DNA of 64,000 bases from Polyangium mundeleinium (GTDB lineage: Bacteria > Myxococcota_A > Polyangia > Polyangiales > Polyangiaceae). The position numbers and the translations under genes were made by a program. Positions within the stretch are counted from its first letter, which is position 1; each line of letters begins with the position of its first letter. The stretch lies in contig NZ_JAQNDO010000001.1 in the NCBI RefSeq assembly GCF_028369105.1, positions 62,001-126,000 of the forward strand. The letters are read 5' to 3'. Of this stretch, positions 52,787-59,989 are shown piece after piece. The notes below the pieces were generated by a model. The model did not search any database. It worked only from the letters and a program-made list of their open reading frames with translations, and was not told the DNA's origin.

Positions 52787-52911
52787 GACGGAACCTCCCT
52801 AGGGGGGTGTGGATCCAGGCAGTTCCCGACGGGAACGTATGTGACGGACGCGAAGCCGTCGAAAAGCTGCTCGCGCCAGCGAGCCCCCGGCTCCGGGAGG
52901 TCATCCCCCGC

Positions 52912-53079
52912 GGGGGATCGTTGGTCGGAGGCGGGGGATCGTTGTTGGGAGCAGGGGGATGTGAAGTGGGATACGGGGGATCGTTGGTCGGAGGCGGGGG
53001 ATCGTTGTTGGGAGCAGGGGGATCGTTGTTGGGAGCAGGGGGGTGTGAGGTCGGATACGGGGGGTCGGTGTTCGGAGCG
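52912..53079. repeat. 21-bp tandem repeat with phased G-tracts
   Basis: Eight consecutive 21-bp units, each starting with GGGGG or GGGGGG. Types: A (52912), B (52933), C (52954), A (52975), B (52996), B (53017), C-like (53038) and a variant (53059), with a partial ninth after 53079. The A-B-C order recurs, so a three-unit block was duplicated. It lies upstream of the leftward 254-residue gene (start 52786) and before the broken RCC1 gene. It can be read as Gly-rich or Pro/Asn-rich peptide depending on strand, but no convincing gene spans it. Confidence 0.85.
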
Positions 53080-53117
53080 GGGGGTGTTGCTTTCCGGGGA
53101 TCCCGGTGTGAGCCTCG

Positions 53118-53742
53118 ATGCCATCGCGTGAAGAAGTGCGCGGCGTCGTGGGAGCGACGGCGATCGGCGTCGGAGGGCGTCTCGGATGTGCCGCCCTCGC
53201 GAACGGCACCGTGCAATGCTGGGGCGCGGGCAAACCGGGGCTCGGCGCGGGGCTCGAGGCCGAACCCGTTCCTTTTCTCGACGGCGTCGCGTCGGTGGCC
53301 GTCGGCGCGGGGCACGGCTGCGCCCGGCTCACGAGCGGCGAGGTGCGCTGCTGGGGCCACAATGCATCGGGGGCAGCTCGGCAACGGGTCGACGACTTCG
53401 CAGGACGAACCGGCGCCCGTTCGGAATCTCCCACCCGCGGTGCGCATTGCGGCGGACCACACTCGTACGTGCGCGGCGACGCGGGGCGGGCGAGGTCCGG
53501 CGCATTGCTTTGAAATGCGATACCAGAGCTTCGACGAATACCTCCGCGACAAGCCCGGGGATATCTCGTTCTATGAGAGGGCAAGCAAACGCGATTTCGG
53601 CTTGCACGAGAACACGCAAATCGCGATCGGCGAGCAGCACGCGTACGCGCTCCGCCGGGATGGAAGCGTGGTCTGCAAGGGTCACAATCCATTCGGCCCG
53701 CTCGGCGATGGCACAGCGCGCGGTCCGTCGATGCCCCATTGA
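53118..53742 (+). pseudogene. Frameshifted and truncated RCC1-repeat gene
   Basis: Frame 1 (from ATG 53118) reads CAALANGTVQCWGAG and CARLTSGEVRCWGHNASG, two RCC1-type repeats. At a run of five G (53369-53373) the repeat continues only in the next frame as QLGNGSTTSQDEPAPVRNLP and later AIGEQHAYALRRDGSVVCKG and PLGDGTARGPSMPH, ending at 53742. One extra G in the run explains the break. There is no signal peptide, and only three to four repeats remain instead of seven. It is a remnant of an RCC1 lipoprotein gene like that at 27111, unless the G-run is a sequencing error. Confidence 0.75.
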
Positions 53743-53950
53743 AGCCACAGGGCTCCGCGGAACCATGCGCCGCGTCCCCGCGTCGCCGACCTCCTCCGGG
53801 GGACTCGCACTGCCGTAACGGCACGACACGCAGGCAGCGTCCTCCGCCGCACCGCGCCATCCCTTTTTCCCCGTACGTCCGCGCGATCCAGCGTCCCGGC
53901 CGAACCTCGTTCCGTGGTATTCATCACTCCGAATCACCCCGGGGGTTCTC
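53743..53950. other. Intergenic region, 208 bp
   Basis: Upstream of the molybdenum hydroxylase operon; must contain its promoter. No clear promoter boxes or hairpin. GGGGG at 53939-53943 before the ATG at 53951 is a usable ribosome site. Confidence 0.35.
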
Positions 53951-55570
53951 ATGTACGACTGGAACGAAAGCGTCCCGTTCGTCGATGCATCGGGCCGCGC
54001 GATTTCCCTCTCCGGTGGGCCCGTGCAGCGCGACTTCGCGCGCAGGGTGCGGCCCATCAAGGTCGTCGACGAGACCCTCCGGGATGGATTGCAGAGCGCG
54101 GCCGGCCACCAGCCCGACGTCGCGCAGAAGATCGACCTGCTCTACGCCATGGCCGCGATCGGCGTCGACGTCGTCAGCGTCGGCCTCCCTGCCGCCGGCC
54201 TCGCCAATGCCGAGGATTGTTTCCTCCTCTGCCGCGAGATCGTCCGTTCCAAGCTCGGCCTCGTCCCCACCGCCGCCGCGCGCACCGTCGTCGCCGATGT
54301 CCACGGCATCGCCCGCGCCGCCGAGCGCGCCGGGATCCCCATCGAGGTCTACGCCTTCATCGGCAGCTCCCCCATTCGCCTCGCCGTTGAAGGGTGGGAC
54401 ACGGACTTCCTCCTCGGCGCCATCACCGCGGCCGCGCGGGAGGCCAAGGCCGCGGGCTTGCCGTTCTGCCTCGTCACCGAGGACACGACCCGCTCGAACC
54501 CCGACGTCCTCCGCAGCCTCTACAGCGCCGCCATCGACGCCGGCGCGAGCCGCATTTGCCTCTGCGACACCACCGGCCACGTCACGCCCTACGGCATCGA
54601 GGCGCTCGTCGGGTTTGCGCGACGCACCCTCGACGAGCTCGGCGCGCGGCACGTCGAGCTCGACTGGCACGGACACAACGACCGCGGCATCGGCCTGCCG
54701 AACGCGTTATGGGCCGCCGCCTCGGGCGTCGATCGCGTGCACGGCACGGGCCTCGGCGTCGGCGAGCGCGTCGGCAACACGAGCCTCGAATTGCTCGTCG
54801 AGAACCTCGGCCTCCTCGGCGCGCGTCCCCGTGTCCCCGAGGCGCGCCTCGTCGAGTACTGCGAGCTCGCTTCCCGCGCGCTCCGGTATCCCATCCCCGC
54901 GGGGCACCCGATCGCCGGCGCGAACATGCGCGGCGCGCGTTTCGAGGTACGCCCCTACCATGCAACGCCCGAGGAGGCGCCTGCATCCGAGCCCCTGGAG
55001 TCCATGGAAAAACTCGTCCCGATGTGCATGAAGATCGGCGGCAGCGCCGTCGCGCTCGCGGTCCCGCCGCGCAGGACGCTCCTCGAAGCGCTGCGGTACG
55101 ACCTCGACCTCGTCGGCACGAAGCAGGGCTGTGACAAGGGGGATTGTGGCGCGTGTACGGTCGTCGTGGACGGCGTCGCGACCCTCTCTTGCCTCACGCT
55201 CGCGCTCGACGCGGACGGCAAGGAGGTCCGCACGGTCGAGACGCTCGAAGGCGCGCCGCACATCGACGCGCTCCTCGACGGTTTCGACAGGCTCGGCGGC
55301 GGGCAGTGCGGGTTCTGTACGCCCGGCATGCTCATGACCGCGACGGCGCTGCTCGACCGGAACGCGCGGCCCACGCGCGACGAGATCAAGTGCGCGATCG
55401 CGGGCAACCTTTGCCGCTGTACGGGTTACGGGAAGATCGTCGACGCGATCGAACTCGCGGCGAAGATCCGTCGCGGCGAGGCGGAGGCGGGCGTGGGTCT
55501 GCCGGGGATCGAGAACACGCCCCCGCCCTTGCCTTCGAACAAGAGCTCGCGTGAGGGGAGGCAGGGCTAG
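53951..55570 (+). CDS. DRE-TIM metallolyase fused to [2Fe-2S] molybdenum-hydroxylase small subunit
   Basis: A 539-residue fusion. Residues 32-330 match the DRE-TIM (HMGL/isopropylmalate-homocitrate synthase) barrel: KVVDETLRDGLQSAAGHQ (R44, D45, Q48), CDTTGHVTP, DWHGHNDRGIG (metal His 240 and 242) and GTGLGVGERVGNTSLE. After the barrel the usual C-terminal FxHxSGIHxDG motif is absent; instead IAGANMRGARFE leads through a linker to a CoxS/HcrC-type domain (358-505). Its plant-ferredoxin-like cluster cysteines are C394, C399, C402, C414 and its second cluster cysteines C453, C456, C488, C490 (QCGFCTPGM, NLCRCTGYG). Two bp before the large-subunit gene. The pairing of activities in one chain is not one I know. 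Confidence 0.85.
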   Translation: MYDWNESVPFVDASGRAISLSGGPVQRDFARRVRPIKVVDETLRDGLQSAAGHQPDVAQKIDLLYAMAAIGVDVVSVGLPAAGLANAEDCFLLCREIVRSKLGLVPTAAARTVVADVHGIARAAERAGIPIEVYAFIGSSPIRLAVEGWDTDFLLGAITAAAREAKAAGLPFCLVTEDTTRSNPDVLRSLYSAAIDAGASRICLCDTTGHVTPYGIEALVGFARRTLDELGARHVELDWHGHNDRGIGLPNALWAAASGVDRVHGTGLGVGERVGNTSLELLVENLGLLGARPRVPEARLVEYCELASRALRYPIPAGHPIAGANMRGARFEVRPYHATPEEAPASEPLESMEKLVPMCMKIGGSAVALAVPPRRTLLEALRYDLDLVGTKQGCDKGDCGACTVVVDGVATLSCLTLALDADGKEVRTVETLEGAPHIDALLDGFDRLGGGQCGFCTPGMLMTATALLDRNARPTRDEIKCAIAGNLCRCTGYGKIVDAIELAAKIRRGEAEAGVGLPGIENTPPPLPSNKSSREGRQG

Positions 55571-55572
55571 CC

Positions 55573-57900
55573 ATGACGGACACGCGAAAGCCGAGTGCGC
55601 TTCGAGGTCTCGTCGGCAGCCGCACGCGCACGCTGCTCGCGCCGCGCGTGACCGGGCAGGTCCGCTACACCGACGACATCCACCTGCCGCGCATGCTCTG
55701 GGGTCGGATCGTCCGCTCGCCACATCCGCACGCGCGCATCGTGCGCATCGACGCGACACGCGCGCTCGCCAAGCCCGGCGTCCTCGCGGTCATCACGGGC
55801 AAGGACATGCCCGAGCGCTTCGGCATCATCCCCTGGACGCCGGACGAGTACCCGCTCGCCCTCGACCACGCGCGCTTCATCGGGGACGCTGTCGCCGCCG
55901 TCGCCGCGACCGACGAGCGCATCGCGCACGAGGCGGCGGAGCTCGTGGACGTCGAGTACGAGGTGCTGCCGGCCGCGACCGATCTGCAGACCGCGATCGA
56001 CAAACCCGAGGTCGGGCTCGGCAAGGGCGGCAAGGACAACGTCTCGAAGGAGGTCGACCTCGCGTTCGGGGACGTCGACGCCGCGCTCGCCGAGAGCGAC
56101 GTCGTCATCACGGGCGACTACTACTACGAGGGCAGCGCGCACGTTCCGATCGAGACCCACTGCGCCATCGGGAACCTCGACAAGAACGGGCTGCTCACGG
56201 TCTGGTCGACGACGCAGGTCCCGCACTACCTGCACCGCGAGCTCTCGCGCGTCCTGCGCGTCCCGCCCACGCGCATCCGCGTGATCCAGCCGCCCGTCGG
56301 CGGCGCCTTCGGCGGCAAGAGCGAGCCCTTCTCGCTCGAGTTCTGCGCCGCCAAGCTCGCGATGGTCACGGGCCGCCCCGTGAAGTTCCTCTACACGCGC
56401 GAGGAGGAGTTTTACGCGCATCGCGGCCGGCACCCGATGCAGATCCACATGAAGGTCGGCGCGAAGCGCGACGGCAAGCTCACCGGCGTCGACGCGCGCA
56501 CCTTCATCGACGGCGGCGCGTACTCCTCGTTTGGCCTCGTCACGACCTACTACTCGGGCCAGCTCCTCACGCTGCCCGCGTTCGCCGACACCTACCGCTT
56601 CCGCTCGACGCGCCTCTTCACGAACAAGCCTCCCTGCGGCCCGAAGCGCGGCCATGGCAGCGTGCAGCCGCGCTTCGCCTTCGAGGTCTCGCTCGACAAG
56701 ATCGCCCGCGCGCTCGCGATCGATCCGATCGAGCTGCGCCGGAAGAACCTCGTCCCGCCGAACACGACCACGCTGAACGGGCTGCGCGTCACCTCGAACG
56801 GCATTGAGCAGTGCCTCGACGCGGTCGCGCAGGCGAGCGGCTGGAAGGACCGCTGGGGCAAGCTGCCGAAGGGGCGCGGGCTCGGCGTGGCCACGAGCGC
56901 GTACATCAGCGGGACGAACTACGCGATCTACCCGAACGCGATGCCGCAGAGCGCGGTGCAGCTCAAGGTCGATCGCTCCGGCGTGGTGACGGTCTTTTCA
57001 GGTCAAAGCGAGATCGGCCAGAGCTGCGACCTCATGCTCGCCGTCCTCGTCGCCGACGAGCTCGGCCTGGATCTCGGGTCGGTGCGCGTCATCTCGGGCG
57101 ACACGGACCTCACGCCCGTCGACCTCGGCGCCTACTCCTCGCGCGGCACGTTCATGAACGGCAACGCGTGCCTCATGGCCGCGCGCGAGATCAAGAGCAA
57201 GCTCGTCGCCGCCGTCGCCGAGAAGCTCGACGTCGATCCGCGGAACGTGCTCGTCACGCGCGGCGCGCTCGTCGTCGTGCACGACCCGGCCCGCGGCGTC
57301 TCCGTCACCGAGGCCATCCAGCTCGCCGAGGCGAAGTTCGGCACGCTCGGCGCCGTCGGCCACTACAACACGCCGAAGCTCGGCGGCGAGTACCGCGGCG
57401 GCACCATCGGCGCCTCGCCTGCGTACTCGTTCACGGCGCACGTCGCCGAGGTCTCGGTCGACGCGCGCTCGGGGTTCGTCCGCGTCGAGAAGATCTGGGT
57501 CGCGCACGACTGCGGCAAGGCCCTCTGTCCCACGATCGTCGAGGGGCAGATGGAAGGATCGGCGTACATGGGCGCGGCCGAGGCGCTGCTCGAAGAGCAC
57601 GTCATCGGGCCCGACGGCCTGCACAAGGGGCCGAACCTGCTCGACTACCGCATCCCGACGAGCCTCGACGTGCCCGACCTGCACGCGCTCATCGTCGAGT
57701 CGGAAGATCAAGAGGGCCCGCTCGGCGCGAAGGAGTCGGGCGAGGGCCCGCTGCACCCGTCGATCCCGGCCATCGCGAACGCCATCTTCGACGCCGTCGG
57801 CGTACGCGTCGACAGGCTCCCCTTCTCCCCCGCGCGTGTCCTCGCGGCCCTTCGAAAGAAGCAGGCCGACGAGGACGCGCGTCACGCCGCTGCGGAGTGA
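55573..57900 (+). CDS. Molybdenum hydroxylase large subunit, 4-hydroxybenzoyl-CoA reductase type
   Basis: A 775-residue member of the xanthine oxidase family, cytoplasmic, binding molybdopterin-cytosine dinucleotide. Landmarks are TGQVRYTDDIHLPRMLWGRI near the start, GAFGGKSEPFSLEFC (about 240), GQSEIGQSCDLMLAV (MPT/Gln motif, about 476) and GAKESGEGPLHPSIPAIANA, whose Glu is the catalytic base. The combination with a four-Cys FAD subunit downstream suggests HcrA, the subunit that dehydroxylates 4-hydroxybenzoyl-CoA, over a CO dehydrogenase or xanthine dehydrogenase. It follows the fusion gene by 2 bp. Substrate remains inferred. Confidence 0.85.
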   Translation: MTDTRKPSALRGLVGSRTRTLLAPRVTGQVRYTDDIHLPRMLWGRIVRSPHPHARIVRIDATRALAKPGVLAVITGKDMPERFGIIPWTPDEYPLALDHARFIGDAVAAVAATDERIAHEAAELVDVEYEVLPAATDLQTAIDKPEVGLGKGGKDNVSKEVDLAFGDVDAALAESDVVITGDYYYEGSAHVPIETHCAIGNLDKNGLLTVWSTTQVPHYLHRELSRVLRVPPTRIRVIQPPVGGAFGGKSEPFSLEFCAAKLAMVTGRPVKFLYTREEEFYAHRGRHPMQIHMKVGAKRDGKLTGVDARTFIDGGAYSSFGLVTTYYSGQLLTLPAFADTYRFRSTRLFTNKPPCGPKRGHGSVQPRFAFEVSLDKIARALAIDPIELRRKNLVPPNTTTLNGLRVTSNGIEQCLDAVAQASGWKDRWGKLPKGRGLGVATSAYISGTNYAIYPNAMPQSAVQLKVDRSGVVTVFSGQSEIGQSCDLMLAVLVADELGLDLGSVRVISGDTDLTPVDLGAYSSRGTFMNGNACLMAAREIKSKLVAAVAEKLDVDPRNVLVTRGALVVVHDPARGVSVTEAIQLAEAKFGTLGAVGHYNTPKLGGEYRGGTIGASPAYSFTAHVAEVSVDARSGFVRVEKIWVAHDCGKALCPTIVEGQMEGSAYMGAAEALLEEHVIGPDGLHKGPNLLDYRIPTSLDVPDLHALIVESEDQEGPLGAKESGEGPLHPSIPAIANAIFDAVGVRVDRLPFSPARVLAALRKKQADEDARHAAAE

Positions 57901-57907
57901 GGTCCTC

Positions 57908-58903
57908 GTGTTACCGCTGCCCGTCTTCGATCATCACAGGCCACGCACCCTCGCGGCGGCGCTCGATCTGCTCGCGCGCCTCGGCGACAAGGCCGTCGTC
58001 CTCGCCGGCGGCACCGACGTCCTGCCCAACATGAAGCATGGGCTCGTCGAGCCCGATCACGTCGTCTCCATCGCCGGCATCGACGAGCTGCGCGGCATCT
58101 CGCTCGACCGCGAGGGCGACGACGACAAGCTCGTCCTCGGCGCCGGCGCGCGCCTCGCCGAGATCGAGAGCTCGATCCTCGTGCGCCGCGTCGCGCCTGC
58201 GCTCGCCGAGGCCGCGGGTCAGGTCGGCGGACCGCACCACCGCGCCATGGGCACGCTCGGCGGAAACATCTGCCTCGACACGCGCTGCCGCTACTACAAC
58301 CAGACCTACTTCTGGCGCAAATCGCTGGGCTTCTGCCTCAAGAAGGACGGCACCGTCTGCCACGTCGTGCGCGGCGGATCGCGCTGCGTCGCCGCCGCCT
58401 CGAACGACACCGCCCCCGCGCTCATCGCGCTCGACGCCGACCTCCACCTCCTCGGCCCGCGCGGCGCGCGCATCGTAAAAGCCCACGATTTCTACGTGGC
58501 CGACGGCATCAAGAACACCGTGCTCGAACCCGGCGAGCTCGTCGTGCGTGTCTCGATCACGCGCCACCCCGGCCGCCGTTCGAGCTTCGAAAAACTTCGC
58601 CGCAGGAACGCGATCGACTTCCCGCTGCTCTCGATCGCCGTCCGGCTCGACGTCTCGGGTGTGGAGACCACGCGCGTCGAGGCCGCGGACGTCGTCGTCT
58701 CGGCGCTCGGCGCTCGGCCGCGTCGCGTCCGCGCCGCATCGAAGGTCCGTCCCGGGACGCCCTTCGACGTCGCCGCGCGCGAGCTCGCCGAAGGCGCCTA
58801 CGCCGAGTGCAAGCCGCTCCCGAACGTCGACGACGACACCGAGTGGCGCCGCGAGATGGTCCCCGCCCTCGTCGAGCGCGCCGTCCTCCGTCTCGAAGGC
58901 TGA
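57908..58903 (+). CDS. Molybdenum hydroxylase FAD subunit with extra [4Fe-4S] loop (HcrB-like)
   Basis: A 331-residue protein starting at GTG 57908 (GGAG/TGAGG upstream). The FAD-binding motifs VVLAGGTDVLPNMKHGL (about 30-46) and GTLGGNICLDTRC (115-127) are the PCMH/CoxM type. Between them and the C-domain lies an insertion with C127, C143, C151 and C160 (spacing 16, 8, 9). This is the spacing I recall for the four ligands of the extra [4Fe-4S] cluster in the 4-hydroxybenzoyl-CoA reductase beta subunit of Thauera, and ordinary CoxM proteins lack it. An additional C122 is present. Last gene of the operon, 7 bp after the large subunit. Confidence 0.85.
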   Translation: MLPLPVFDHHRPRTLAAALDLLARLGDKAVVLAGGTDVLPNMKHGLVEPDHVVSIAGIDELRGISLDREGDDDKLVLGAGARLAEIESSILVRRVAPALAEAAGQVGGPHHRAMGTLGGNICLDTRCRYYNQTYFWRKSLGFCLKKDGTVCHVVRGGSRCVAAASNDTAPALIALDADLHLLGPRGARIVKAHDFYVADGIKNTVLEPGELVVRVSITRHPGRRSSFEKLRRRNAIDFPLLSIAVRLDVSGVETTRVEAADVVVSALGARPRRVRAASKVRPGTPFDVAARELAEGAYAECKPLPNVDDDTEWRREMVPALVERAVLRLEG

Positions 58904-59017
58904 AGGCCGAGATCCCAGGCCCTTTGCGATCTCCCCCGCGCTCCGGGGCGTGATCCCCGCGCGTCCCCCGAATTCCTCCCTTGCGGCGCCGACGCGCGCG
59001 GACCAAGGTCCCTGTAG

Positions 59018-59989
59018 GTGCGCTTTCTCCCGTTCGTCCTCGTCGCCACCGGGCTGCACTTCTTCATCCCGGTCGTCGCTCGAGTCGCGCCGCGGCCGAA
59101 TGGCCCGCTCCTCGCGATCTCGACCGGCTTGGCGCGGCGCATGGAGATCGACATCGAGGACGTCCCGATCGAGCCGGCGCGCCCGGACGAACCTCGTTTC
59201 GAGCGTCCGCAGGATCCCGCGGTCGCGATGAACGACACGCGTCCGCGCACGACGGACGCAGTCGACCCGCGTGTCGTGGAGCCGAACACCATCGAGCCGC
59301 AGCAGGTCGAGCCCGTGCCCACGGCGATGCCTTCGGCCGCCCCGCCCGACGAGTACGGCGCGCCGCCGCCCGCGGCGACCGGCGGGGGCCCTGGGATCCC
59401 GGGCCTCGGCGGGCCCGTGTGGGCGATGCCCGGCGTCATCCCCGAGACGGGCAAGCCGAAGCCCGCGCCCACCACGGTCGGGCCTCCGCCCGAGGTCGAT
59501 CGCAAGATCGCGGGCCGCTTGATCACCGACGTGATGCGCGAGAAGGATCGACAGCTCGGCCTGGATCTACCGGGCGCGGGCACGATCGCGAGTGTCGTCT
59601 CCGATGTCGTGCGCGGCTCGGGCACGCCCGACGTTTCGCGCGCGACGCTCGAAGTGCGCATCGCGCCCGGCGGTCGTGTGGCGAGCGTGCGTGTCGTGCG
59701 TTCGTCGGCGGGCAACGCGGGCGACTGGAGCGCGGTCGCGGGCGCGGTGAGCGGGCGGCTCGCGAGCCGACAGTTCACGCTGCCGGAGTCGTATGCGGCG
59801 GGCGCGATCGTGATGGTCGAGGTCGTCTCGCAGCTCCAGATGCCGGACGGCAGCACGGGCGGCACGAACATCGGCAAGGGCGGGTCGAGCGACAGCCTCG
59901 GCGGCAGCGTGAGCTTCGACGTGGCGAACATCGGCGCGCGCCCCAAGCGCCACGTGCGCGCCTCCGCCAGCGCGCGGCCGGCGACCTGA
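59018..59989 (+). CDS. Membrane-anchored protein with TonB/AgmX-like C-terminus
   Basis: A 323-residue protein starting at GTG 59018. The N-terminus RFLPFVLVATGLHFFIPVVA is a short hydrophobic segment (signal anchor or uncleaved signal). Residues 50-150 are Pro/Glu/Val-rich (EPNTIEPQQVEPVPTAMPSA) as in the periplasm-spanning linkers of TonB-like proteins. A C-terminal folded block includes ATLEVRIAPGGRVASVRVVR and FTLPESYAAGAIVMVEVVSQ, reminiscent of TonB/AgmX C-terminal domains. I cannot place it in a named family. The tail SFDVANIGARPKRHVRASAS is basic. Function unknown. Confidence 0.65.
   Translation: MRFLPFVLVATGLHFFIPVVARVAPRPNGPLLAISTGLARRMEIDIEDVPIEPARPDEPRFERPQDPAVAMNDTRPRTTDAVDPRVVEPNTIEPQQVEPVPTAMPSAAPPDEYGAPPPAATGGGPGIPGLGGPVWAMPGVIPETGKPKPAPTTVGPPPEVDRKIAGRLITDVMREKDRQLGLDLPGAGTIASVVSDVVRGSGTPDVSRATLEVRIAPGGRVASVRVVRSSAGNAGDWSAVAGAVSGRLASRQFTLPESYAAGAIVMVEVVSQLQMPDGSTGGTNIGKGGSSDSLGGSVSFDVANIGARPKRHVRASASARPAT

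What the first reader, a model, noticed from the sequence alone, without database searches (positions are those of the whole stretch)
53951..55570. A DRE-TIM acyl-transferase/lyase fused to the Fe-S subunit of a 4-hydroxybenzoyl-CoA-reductase-like enzyme
One uninterrupted frame carries a homocitrate/isopropylmalate-synthase-like barrel (active-site R44/D45/Q48, H240/H242) and a complete two-cluster [2Fe-2S] CoxS/HcrC domain with all eight cysteines. The barrel lacks the C-terminal FxHxSGIHxDG block, so its chemistry may be altered. The two activities belong to different pathways (C-C bond formation or cleavage and molybdenum hydroxylation). A fixed fusion suggests a shared substrate, possibly an acyl-CoA passed from one site to the other. 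I do not know of such a fusion.
Basis: partly seen in the sequence, partly recalled or inferred. Interest (0 to 1): 0.82.

Follow-up and report, generated by a model that had tools for sequence, protein, structure and literature searches.

The report
Carbon-bond enzyme tethered to phenol-dehydroxylating complex
A soil bacterium makes one long protein that joins a metal-dependent carbon–carbon-bond enzyme to a small electron-carrying subunit of an enzyme resembling those that strip the hydroxyl group from phenolic acids; many related bacteria keep the two genes side by side, so they probably work together, but what the first part does is not known.

Summary
The fusion is real. One open frame (53951-55570, 539 aa) holds a DRE-TIM barrel of the Claisen-condensing kind, a flexible linker and a two-cluster [2Fe-2S] domain 50% identical to HcrC of 4-hydroxybenzoyl-CoA reductase (HCR); HcrA- and HcrB-like genes follow. 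The fused frame was confirmed in 16 genomes, all in one family, and the barrel is under as strong purifying selection as the Fe-S half. Elsewhere the barrel is a separate gene: in 27 of 44 genomes with an HcrA-like gene a barrel lies within 2.5 kb (16 fused, 11 not). HCR-linked barrels are not one clade (AU p = 1e-93): paralogues of a widespread isopropylmalate/homocitrate-synthase-like enzyme seem to have joined HCR operons several times. The fused barrel keeps its metal-site residues but lacks the block with the catalytic histidine. All 16 fusion genomes carry BoxB, so benzoyl-CoA made here could enter the box pathway; the window's genome has no BcrB match. The barrel's reaction is unproven. 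My best guess is acetyl-CoA/2-oxoacid chemistry that supplies ferredoxin electrons to HCR; channelling of an aromatic acyl-CoA is not shown, and covalent fusion is not needed in relatives. New variant of a known kind.

The parts
53951..55570 (+). fusion gene, 539 aa: DRE-TIM (HMGL-like/Claisen-type) barrel + HcrC/CoxS-type [2Fe-2S] subunit
54050..54925 (+). barrel, residues 34-325; R44, D45, Q48, R143, E177, H240, H242, N276 present; C-terminal block with the catalytic His of IPMS/HCS/MAM missing
54926..55009 (+). linker, residues 326-353; 332-351 has pLDDT < 50; fast-evolving; possible internal start Met352 (55004) in 5 of 6 genus members
55010..55471 (+). HcrC-like domain, residues 354-507, two [2Fe-2S] clusters, eight Cys; 50% identical to 1rm6 chain C
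55573..57900 (+). HcrA-like molybdopterin subunit (775 aa); TIGR03194 823.5 bits, below its cut-off of 994.55; 608 bits to 1rm6 chain A
57836..58903 (+). HcrB-like FAD subunit (true start uncertain, 57836-57908)
58286..58387 (+). HcrB-type [4Fe-4S] insertion: four Cys aligned with C122, C138, C146, C155 of 1rm6 chain B

Best explanation
Shown by sequence: the gene encodes an HcrC-type (gamma, Fe-S) subunit of a 4-hydroxybenzoyl-CoA-reductase-like molybdenum complex with a DRE-TIM barrel of the Claisen-condensing subgroup at its N-terminus; the next two genes complete the complex. The barrel belongs to a widespread isopropylmalate/homocitrate-synthase-like family, members of which sit in HCR operons in several separate branches. 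Inferred: the Mo part reduces 4-hydroxybenzoyl-CoA (or a close phenolic thioester) to benzoyl-CoA, which in this genome would enter the aerobic box pathway and in BCR-bearing relatives the anaerobic one. Inferred, less sure: the barrel handles acetyl-CoA/2-oxoacid (citrate- or alkylmalate-type) carbon next to HCR, so that acetyl-CoA from ring degradation is turned by synthase, aconitase-like isomerase, decarboxylating dehydrogenase and 2-oxoacid:ferredoxin oxidoreductase into the reduced ferredoxin that HCR consumes. Its base must come from elsewhere (partner subunit, full-length paralogue or a new residue), or it runs a lyase-type variant of the reaction.
For: Operon and complex. Conserved fusion: 16 genomes. 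A barrel within 2.5 kb of HcrA in 27 of 44 genomes against about 0.07 expected in a simple 9-Mb model. Barrel beside bcr genes with oah, had and dch in L019, L020, L149, L169, L193. HCR-linked barrels not monophyletic, AU p 1.06e-93. Selection and intact metal-site residues. BoxB over cut-off in 16 of 16 fusion genomes; BoxC and a BoxR-like regulator beside BoxB in the window's genome; bcr, hcr and boxBC adjacent in G355. Acetyl-CoA/2-oxoacid link: aconitase-like gene within about 4.4 kb of fused or block-less barrels in six loci, in three of these genomes as a second copy; 2-oxoacid:ferredoxin oxidoreductase genes divergent from the short barrel of G355; KorA near the full-length barrel in seven loci and KorB in six of them; C-terminal piece of an isopropylmalate/homoisocitrate-type dehydrogenase beside barrel and HCR in L172; succinate-CoA-transferase-like gene, below its model's cut-off, in the G403 HCR operon. 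HCR takes electrons from reduced ferredoxin (PMC12771579, passages).
Against: The fused barrel lacks the block that carries the likely base of MAM synthase (His388; PMC11532901 passages; alignment). 17 of the 44 HcrA genomes have no barrel within 2.5 kb. All 53 genomes checked have PF00285 citrate-synthase proteins, so no extra citrate-forming enzyme is obviously needed. In the window's genome the aconitase-like gene is 12.4 Mb away along the contig (about 0.8 Mb if the contig is circular, not checked), and the oxidoreductase queries found nothing in the window. The oxidoreductase neighbourhoods are few: eight loci of 157 sequences searched, seven of them with the full-length enzyme and from one branch. 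An Arg of homocitrate synthase that I recall as the 2-oxoglutarate ligand Arg163 aligns with C173 here. No assay exists.
Confidence: 0.33

Rival explanations
1. The barrel acts directly on the aromatic route: as an aldol/Claisen-type lyase or synthase it makes or uses the 4-hydroxyaryl thioester (or a precursor 2-oxoacid or hydroxyacyl-CoA), and the fusion passes that compound to the Mo site.
For: Close coupling to HCR; loss of the synthase-type base makes a different reaction plausible; DRE-TIM aldolases and HMG-CoA lyases also align well (best Z 29.3 and 28.1).
Against: Metal-site residues are those of the full-length family; the fold is closest to HCS/MAM/IPMS (best Z 36.6, 36.5, 36.0); some HCR-linked barrels keep the C-terminal block (L017, L019, L020, L026, L193); aconitase-like neighbours point to a citrate/alkylmalate-type product; separate genes in relatives.
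Confidence: 0.2
2. The short or fused barrel works as half of a heterodimer: the full-length paralogue of the same genome supplies the C-terminal block and base in trans, so the fusion tethers a synthase-type reaction to HCR.
For: 33 of 34 genomes with a short or fused barrel have a second barrel place, mostly of full-length type by match range; in IPMS the block is said to reach the partner subunit's active site (recalled).
Against: No interaction data; full-length barrels occur alone in many genomes; G401 (87% complete) showed only the short one.
Confidence: 0.15
3. The barrel is a non-catalytic scaffold or regulatory sensor on the HCR complex.
For: Base-carrying block absent from all 10 fused rows; 17 of 44 HcrA genomes do without a barrel within 2.5 kb.
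Against: dN/dS equal to that of the Fe-S domain; H240, H242, E177 and N276 invariant in the 25 short and 10 fused rows, R44, D45 and Q48 in all but one truncated row; the Sorangium group keeps a short barrel without an HcrA match.
Confidence: 0.15
4. The Mo complex is not HCR but another phenol dehydroxylase or hydroxylase of the xanthine-oxidase family.
For: All three parts score below the NCBIfam equivalog cut-offs; a second reductive family member, Ucdh, acts on urolithin C (PMC12771579, passages); the six genomes of the genus have no BcrB or Oah match.
Against: HcrB [4Fe-4S] cysteines conserved; 1rm6 is by far the closest solved enzyme for HcrA (608 against 287 bits for the next); HCR-like genes of relatives lie beside bcr genes in L019, L020, L193, L202; box genes present.
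Confidence: 0.2
5. The fusion is an assembly or sequencing artefact.
For: None found.
Against: 16 genomes with the fused frame.
Confidence: 0.01

Closest known systems
4-hydroxybenzoyl-CoA reductase HcrABC (Thauera aromatica, PDB 1rm6/1sb3)
   Same: Three subunits of the xanthine-oxidase family; both [2Fe-2S] clusters; HcrB [4Fe-4S] insertion; gamma domain 50% identical, rmsd 1.3 A
   Different: Gamma subunit carries an N-terminal DRE-TIM barrel and linker of about 350 residues; scores below NCBIfam equivalog cut-offs
Claisen-condensing DRE-TIM enzymes: homocitrate synthase (6ktq, 3ivs), isopropylmalate synthase (3rmj), MAM synthase (6e1j), citramalate synthase (3ble)
   Same: Barrel fold (Z 31-37), RD/HxH metal site, TED and GxGERxGN motifs
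   Different: RDGLQ instead of RDGEQ; S, N, D or T in place of the E near residue 76; R at 'SPIR'; C-terminal block with the catalytic His absent; fused to an Fe-S subunit
Re-citrate synthase
   Same: Also related to homocitrate synthase and often misannotated (PMC12016533, passages); would fit the aconitase/2-oxoacid neighbours
   Different: No Re-citrate synthase sequence was compared here; PF00285 citrate synthases are present in all 53 genomes checked
HMG-CoA lyase
   Same: DRE-TIM barrel; RDGLQ (lyase motif recalled)
   Different: Lower structural match (best Z 28.1); the lyase's cysteine loop (recalled) has no Cys here; no lyase model among the 25 of 32 NCBIfam families shown

Membership tests
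[quoted passage not shown]
   C394/399/402/414 and C453/456/488/490; 1rm6_C Z 26.4, 50% identity
4-hydroxybenzoyl-CoA reductase | beta subunit with additional [4Fe-4S] cluster | tested here: met
   four Cys aligned with C122/138/146/155 of 1rm6_B (that these are the ligands is recalled)
4-hydroxybenzoyl-CoA reductase | NCBIfam equivalog cut-offs TIGR03193/03194/03195 | tested here: not met
   156.6 of 257.8, 823.5 of 994.55 and 266.2 of 404.55 bits; 0 of 183 order genomes pass TIGR03194
4-hydroxybenzoyl-CoA reductase | reduces 4-hydroxybenzoyl-CoA with ferredoxin | not testable with these tools
   needs an assay
Claisen-condensing DRE-TIM (IPMS/HCS/MAM) | barrel with Arg-Asp and HxH metal site | tested here: met
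   R44, D45, H240, H242, N276; fold Z 31-37
Claisen-condensing DRE-TIM (IPMS/HCS/MAM) | C-terminal block with catalytic His (His388 of MAM) | tested here: not met
   absent from the window protein and the nine other fused rows; 25 unfused rows lack it too, 33 have it (classes were defined by it)
isopropylmalate or homocitrate synthase | NCBIfam equivalog cut-offs | tested here: not met
   best 124.5 of 532 and 122.3 of 462.9 bits
HMG-CoA lyase | lyase-type active-site Cys loop | tested here: inconclusive
   no Cys in the GTGLGVGERVGN region by eye; motif recalled; weaker fold match

The most novel reading that the evidence does not exclude
A Claisen-type carbon–carbon-bond enzyme is a working part of 4-hydroxybenzoyl-CoA-reductase-like systems in this bacterial group, recruited several times from a widespread paralogue and in one family welded onto the Fe-S subunit after losing its own base. 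It couples acetyl-CoA/2-oxoacid carbon flow to the low-potential electron demand of aromatic dehydroxylation, or carries out a DRE-TIM reaction not yet described.
Probability: 0.3. Interest if true: 0.78.

Novelty: new variant of a known kind. Interest (0 to 1): 0.58.

Why it matters
It ties together two enzyme classes that none of the papers in my capped search listings treats as a pair, and the repeated recruitment suggests that the link is useful to the cell and no accident of one genome. If the coupling is real it could show how bacteria pay for a ferredoxin-dependent dehydroxylation, and would add a component to a textbook aromatic pathway. It also points to a widespread, unassigned pair of enzymes (IPMS/HCS-like synthase and aconitase-like isomerase) in this order, and gives a natural example of a DRE-TIM barrel that keeps its metal site without its known base.

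Tried and rejected
Artefact or frameshift: rejected (16 genomes). Leucine enzyme: the window barrel scores about 107-108 bits on the LeuA model against a cut-off of 598.7. Re-citrate synthase replacing the ordinary enzyme: not supported, since 53 of 53 genomes have PF00285 proteins (four matches in the window's genome). Internal start at Met352 giving a separate Fe-S protein: a weak GGAG lies 3 nt upstream; Met352 is missing in G292 and not seen at that place in the nine other fused rows shown; not excluded in this genus. Sigma-70 promoter and terminator scan of 53000-59200: nothing above chance. Literature: searches gave capped listings (25 of 59, 25 of 42, 15 of 277, 4 of 4, 11 of 11, 11 of 11, 10 of 19) in which I saw no paper on this fusion; I read passages only of PMC12771579, PMC12016533 and PMC11532901, and nothing else beyond titles and starts of abstracts.

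Single origin of the fusion: one fused clade is rejected (p 5e-47), but one fusion followed by splits in unfused members of the same clade (Sorangium group, G439, G416, G470, G471, G355) is as possible as several fusions. Block-less barrels as one clade: only weakly rejected (p 0.038). The groups come from labels fixed before the tests but after a first quick tree, so the p values are not those of a blind test.

Rows dropped: of 69 barrel rows extracted from the window, L001-L026 and L133-L206, L025 (fragment) was left out, and L025, L008, L009, L142 (near copies), L146 and L150 (long branches) out of the 63-row tree. Eight loci were set aside beforehand as repeats (two of them, L185 and L186, hold no barrel). 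L169 was labelled HCR-linked though its HcrA lies 10.9 kb off; L149 (bcr but no HCR in view) was not. L041 was left out of the structure alignment (stop in frame). The match table was cut off, so 16 fusions is a lower bound, and barrels outside the family were not all fetched.

Full report
Observation. Window 53951-55570 is one open frame of 539 codons. Pfam finds HMGL-like at 36-300, Fer2 at 362-413 and Fer2_2 at 428-501. The eight cysteines of the two [2Fe-2S] clusters are present. An HcrA-like gene (55573-57900) follows after 2 nt and an HcrB-like gene, start uncertain at 57836-57908, ends at 58903, so the three look like one operon. The nearest solved enzyme for all three Mo-complex parts is 4-hydroxybenzoyl-CoA reductase, PDB 1rm6, including the four cysteines of its extra [4Fe-4S] cluster. 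All three score below the curated NCBIfam cut-offs for that enzyme, so I call them HCR-like.

Is the fusion real? Yes. In 183 genomes of the order (match table cut off) the fused frame was confirmed in 16: six of the same genus and ten more of the same family (G438 is cut by a contig end). L001, L002 and L003 of the genome-contig scan are on contigs of the same length as those of G196, G481 and G347 and are not counted again. Among the six genus members dN/dS is 0.134 in the barrel, 0.132 in the Fe-S domain and 0.318 in the linker. An AlphaFold2 model (mean pLDDT 82.5, pTM 0.69) has two well-folded domains and a linker below pLDDT 50 at 332-351.

What the barrel is. The best structural matches are homocitrate synthase 6ktq (Z 36.6), MAM synthase 6e1j (36.5) and isopropylmalate synthase 3rmj (36.0), then 4-hydroxy-2-oxovalerate aldolase (29.3) and HMG-CoA lyase (28.1). 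In 68 barrel rows (33 with the C-terminal block, 25 short, 10 fused; classes defined by the block and by fusion) E177, H240, H242, E272, R273 and N276 are invariant; R44 and Q48 are too, apart from one truncated row; D45 is E in one full-length row and R143 is Q in one. None of the 10 fused rows has the block. By alignment to 6e1j the second His of that block is His388 of MAM synthase, which mutagenesis marks as the likely base (PMC11532901, passages). So the fused barrel keeps the metal site and lacks the known base.

Relatives and gene order. Closest unfused arrangement: short barrel, separate Fe-S gene, HcrA, HcrB in line (L166, L168, same clade as the fusions). Other genomes have a short barrel divergent from or in line with the HCR genes (L133, L136-L139, L167, L172, L192, L195). 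L017, L019, L020 and L193 have a full-length barrel in line with HCR genes; L019, L020 and L193 also show bcr, oah, had and dch genes. Of 44 order genomes with an HcrA-like gene at E <= 1e-170, 27 have a barrel within 2.5 kb (16 fused, 11 not), one more (G115) has one 10.9 kb off inside its bcr cluster, and 16 have none on the same contig; about 0.07 would be expected by chance in a simple 9-Mb model. Of those 16, two have no barrel match, seven have one place of full-length type by match range, six have two places on other contigs, and in G401 short contigs separate the genes. Of the 27, ten have BcrB over cut-off.

Independent recruitment. A 63-row tree places HCR-linked barrels in the main short/fused clade, in a group of short barrels split from it, in a second short clade next to a full-length row, in a full-length group beside Nannocystis-type barrels, and at L026. 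Holding all 27 HCR-linked rows together is rejected (AU p 1.06e-93). I read this as several recruitments of paralogues into HCR operons; deep loss and gene transfer could mimic part of it.

The metabolic setting. BcrB is over cut-off in 24 of 183 order genomes and Oah in 25; the six genomes of the window's genus match neither. BoxB of the aerobic benzoyl-CoA pathway is over cut-off in 34 of 40 genomes searched, among them all 16 fusion genomes, so it is common here and not specific to the fusion. The window's genome has a BoxR-like regulator, BoxC and BoxB together. In G355 boxB and boxC lie directly beside the bcr and hcr genes. Benzoyl-CoA from HCR therefore has a plausible outlet with or without BCR.

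What the barrel might do. Six loci with fused or block-less barrels have an aconitase-like gene within about 4.4 kb (G403, G239, G485, G120, G439, G416); in the first three genomes it is a second copy. That aconitase-like family occurs in 120 of 183 genomes and a barrel of any kind in 126; the sets overlap largely, but at least four genomes differ in each direction. A 2-oxoacid:ferredoxin oxidoreductase with a GltD-like gene is divergent from the short barrel of G355; KorA lies near the full-length barrel in seven loci of one branch, KorB in six; the end of an isopropylmalate/homoisocitrate-type dehydrogenase adjoins barrel and HCR in L172; and a succinate-CoA-transferase-like gene is in the G403 HCR operon. 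Together these suggest synthase–isomerase–decarboxylase–ferredoxin chemistry, and HCR uses reduced ferredoxin (PMC12771579, passages). Each link rests on few loci, none of them in the window itself, so the electron-supply reading is a hypothesis (about one in three). Direct aromatic chemistry, action through the full-length paralogue, or a scaffold role remain open.

Verdict. A real, conserved domain fusion and, more important, a recurrent association between a DRE-TIM Claisen-type barrel and 4-hydroxybenzoyl-CoA-reductase-like enzymes. The search listings named under Tried and rejected showed no description of it. Interest 0.58.

Noticed in passing
G000:C1:12856266-12857144 (L082, L141) and G000:C1:12542383-12544359 (L187): A full-length IPMS/HCS-like barrel (FRTATGVH block) and an aconitase-like LeuD-LeuC protein are widespread in the order; of 27 barrel-bearing genomes checked, 15 have no LeuA over cut-off and no LeuC-type match by frame and score, 12 have both. 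Possibly an unrecognised leucine, citrate or homocitrate-type pathway.
   Followed up: partly
L004 8007-8888, L005 8121-9002, L162 9237-10121: The Sorangium group (G475-G478) has a short barrel but no HcrA-like match at E <= 1e-170: the barrel may have a use without HCR.
   Followed up: partly
L134, L135 (G464, G465): Another short barrel, placed among the full-length rows in the tree, without HCR in view; the G465 match contains two TAA stops.
   Followed up: no
L133 5836-6321, L138 4380-4865, L193 6471-7433: GNAT-type acetyltransferase-like genes beside HCR operons.
   Followed up: partly
L169 8246-8908, L193 7372-8130: Crp-type regulators beside had, towards the barrel or HCR genes.
   Followed up: partly
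L202 2916-18128 (G355): had-oah-dch-bcrCBAD-hcrC-hcrA-hcrB directly beside boxB and boxC: anaerobic and aerobic benzoyl-CoA routes in one cluster.
   Followed up: yes
window 53118-53818: RCC1-like repeat fragments (motif recalled, by eye) spread over more than one frame upstream of the fusion; looks like a decayed gene.
   Followed up: no
window about 52860-53100: Short repeats that read GGSLLGAGG or similar in one frame (by eye).
   Followed up: no
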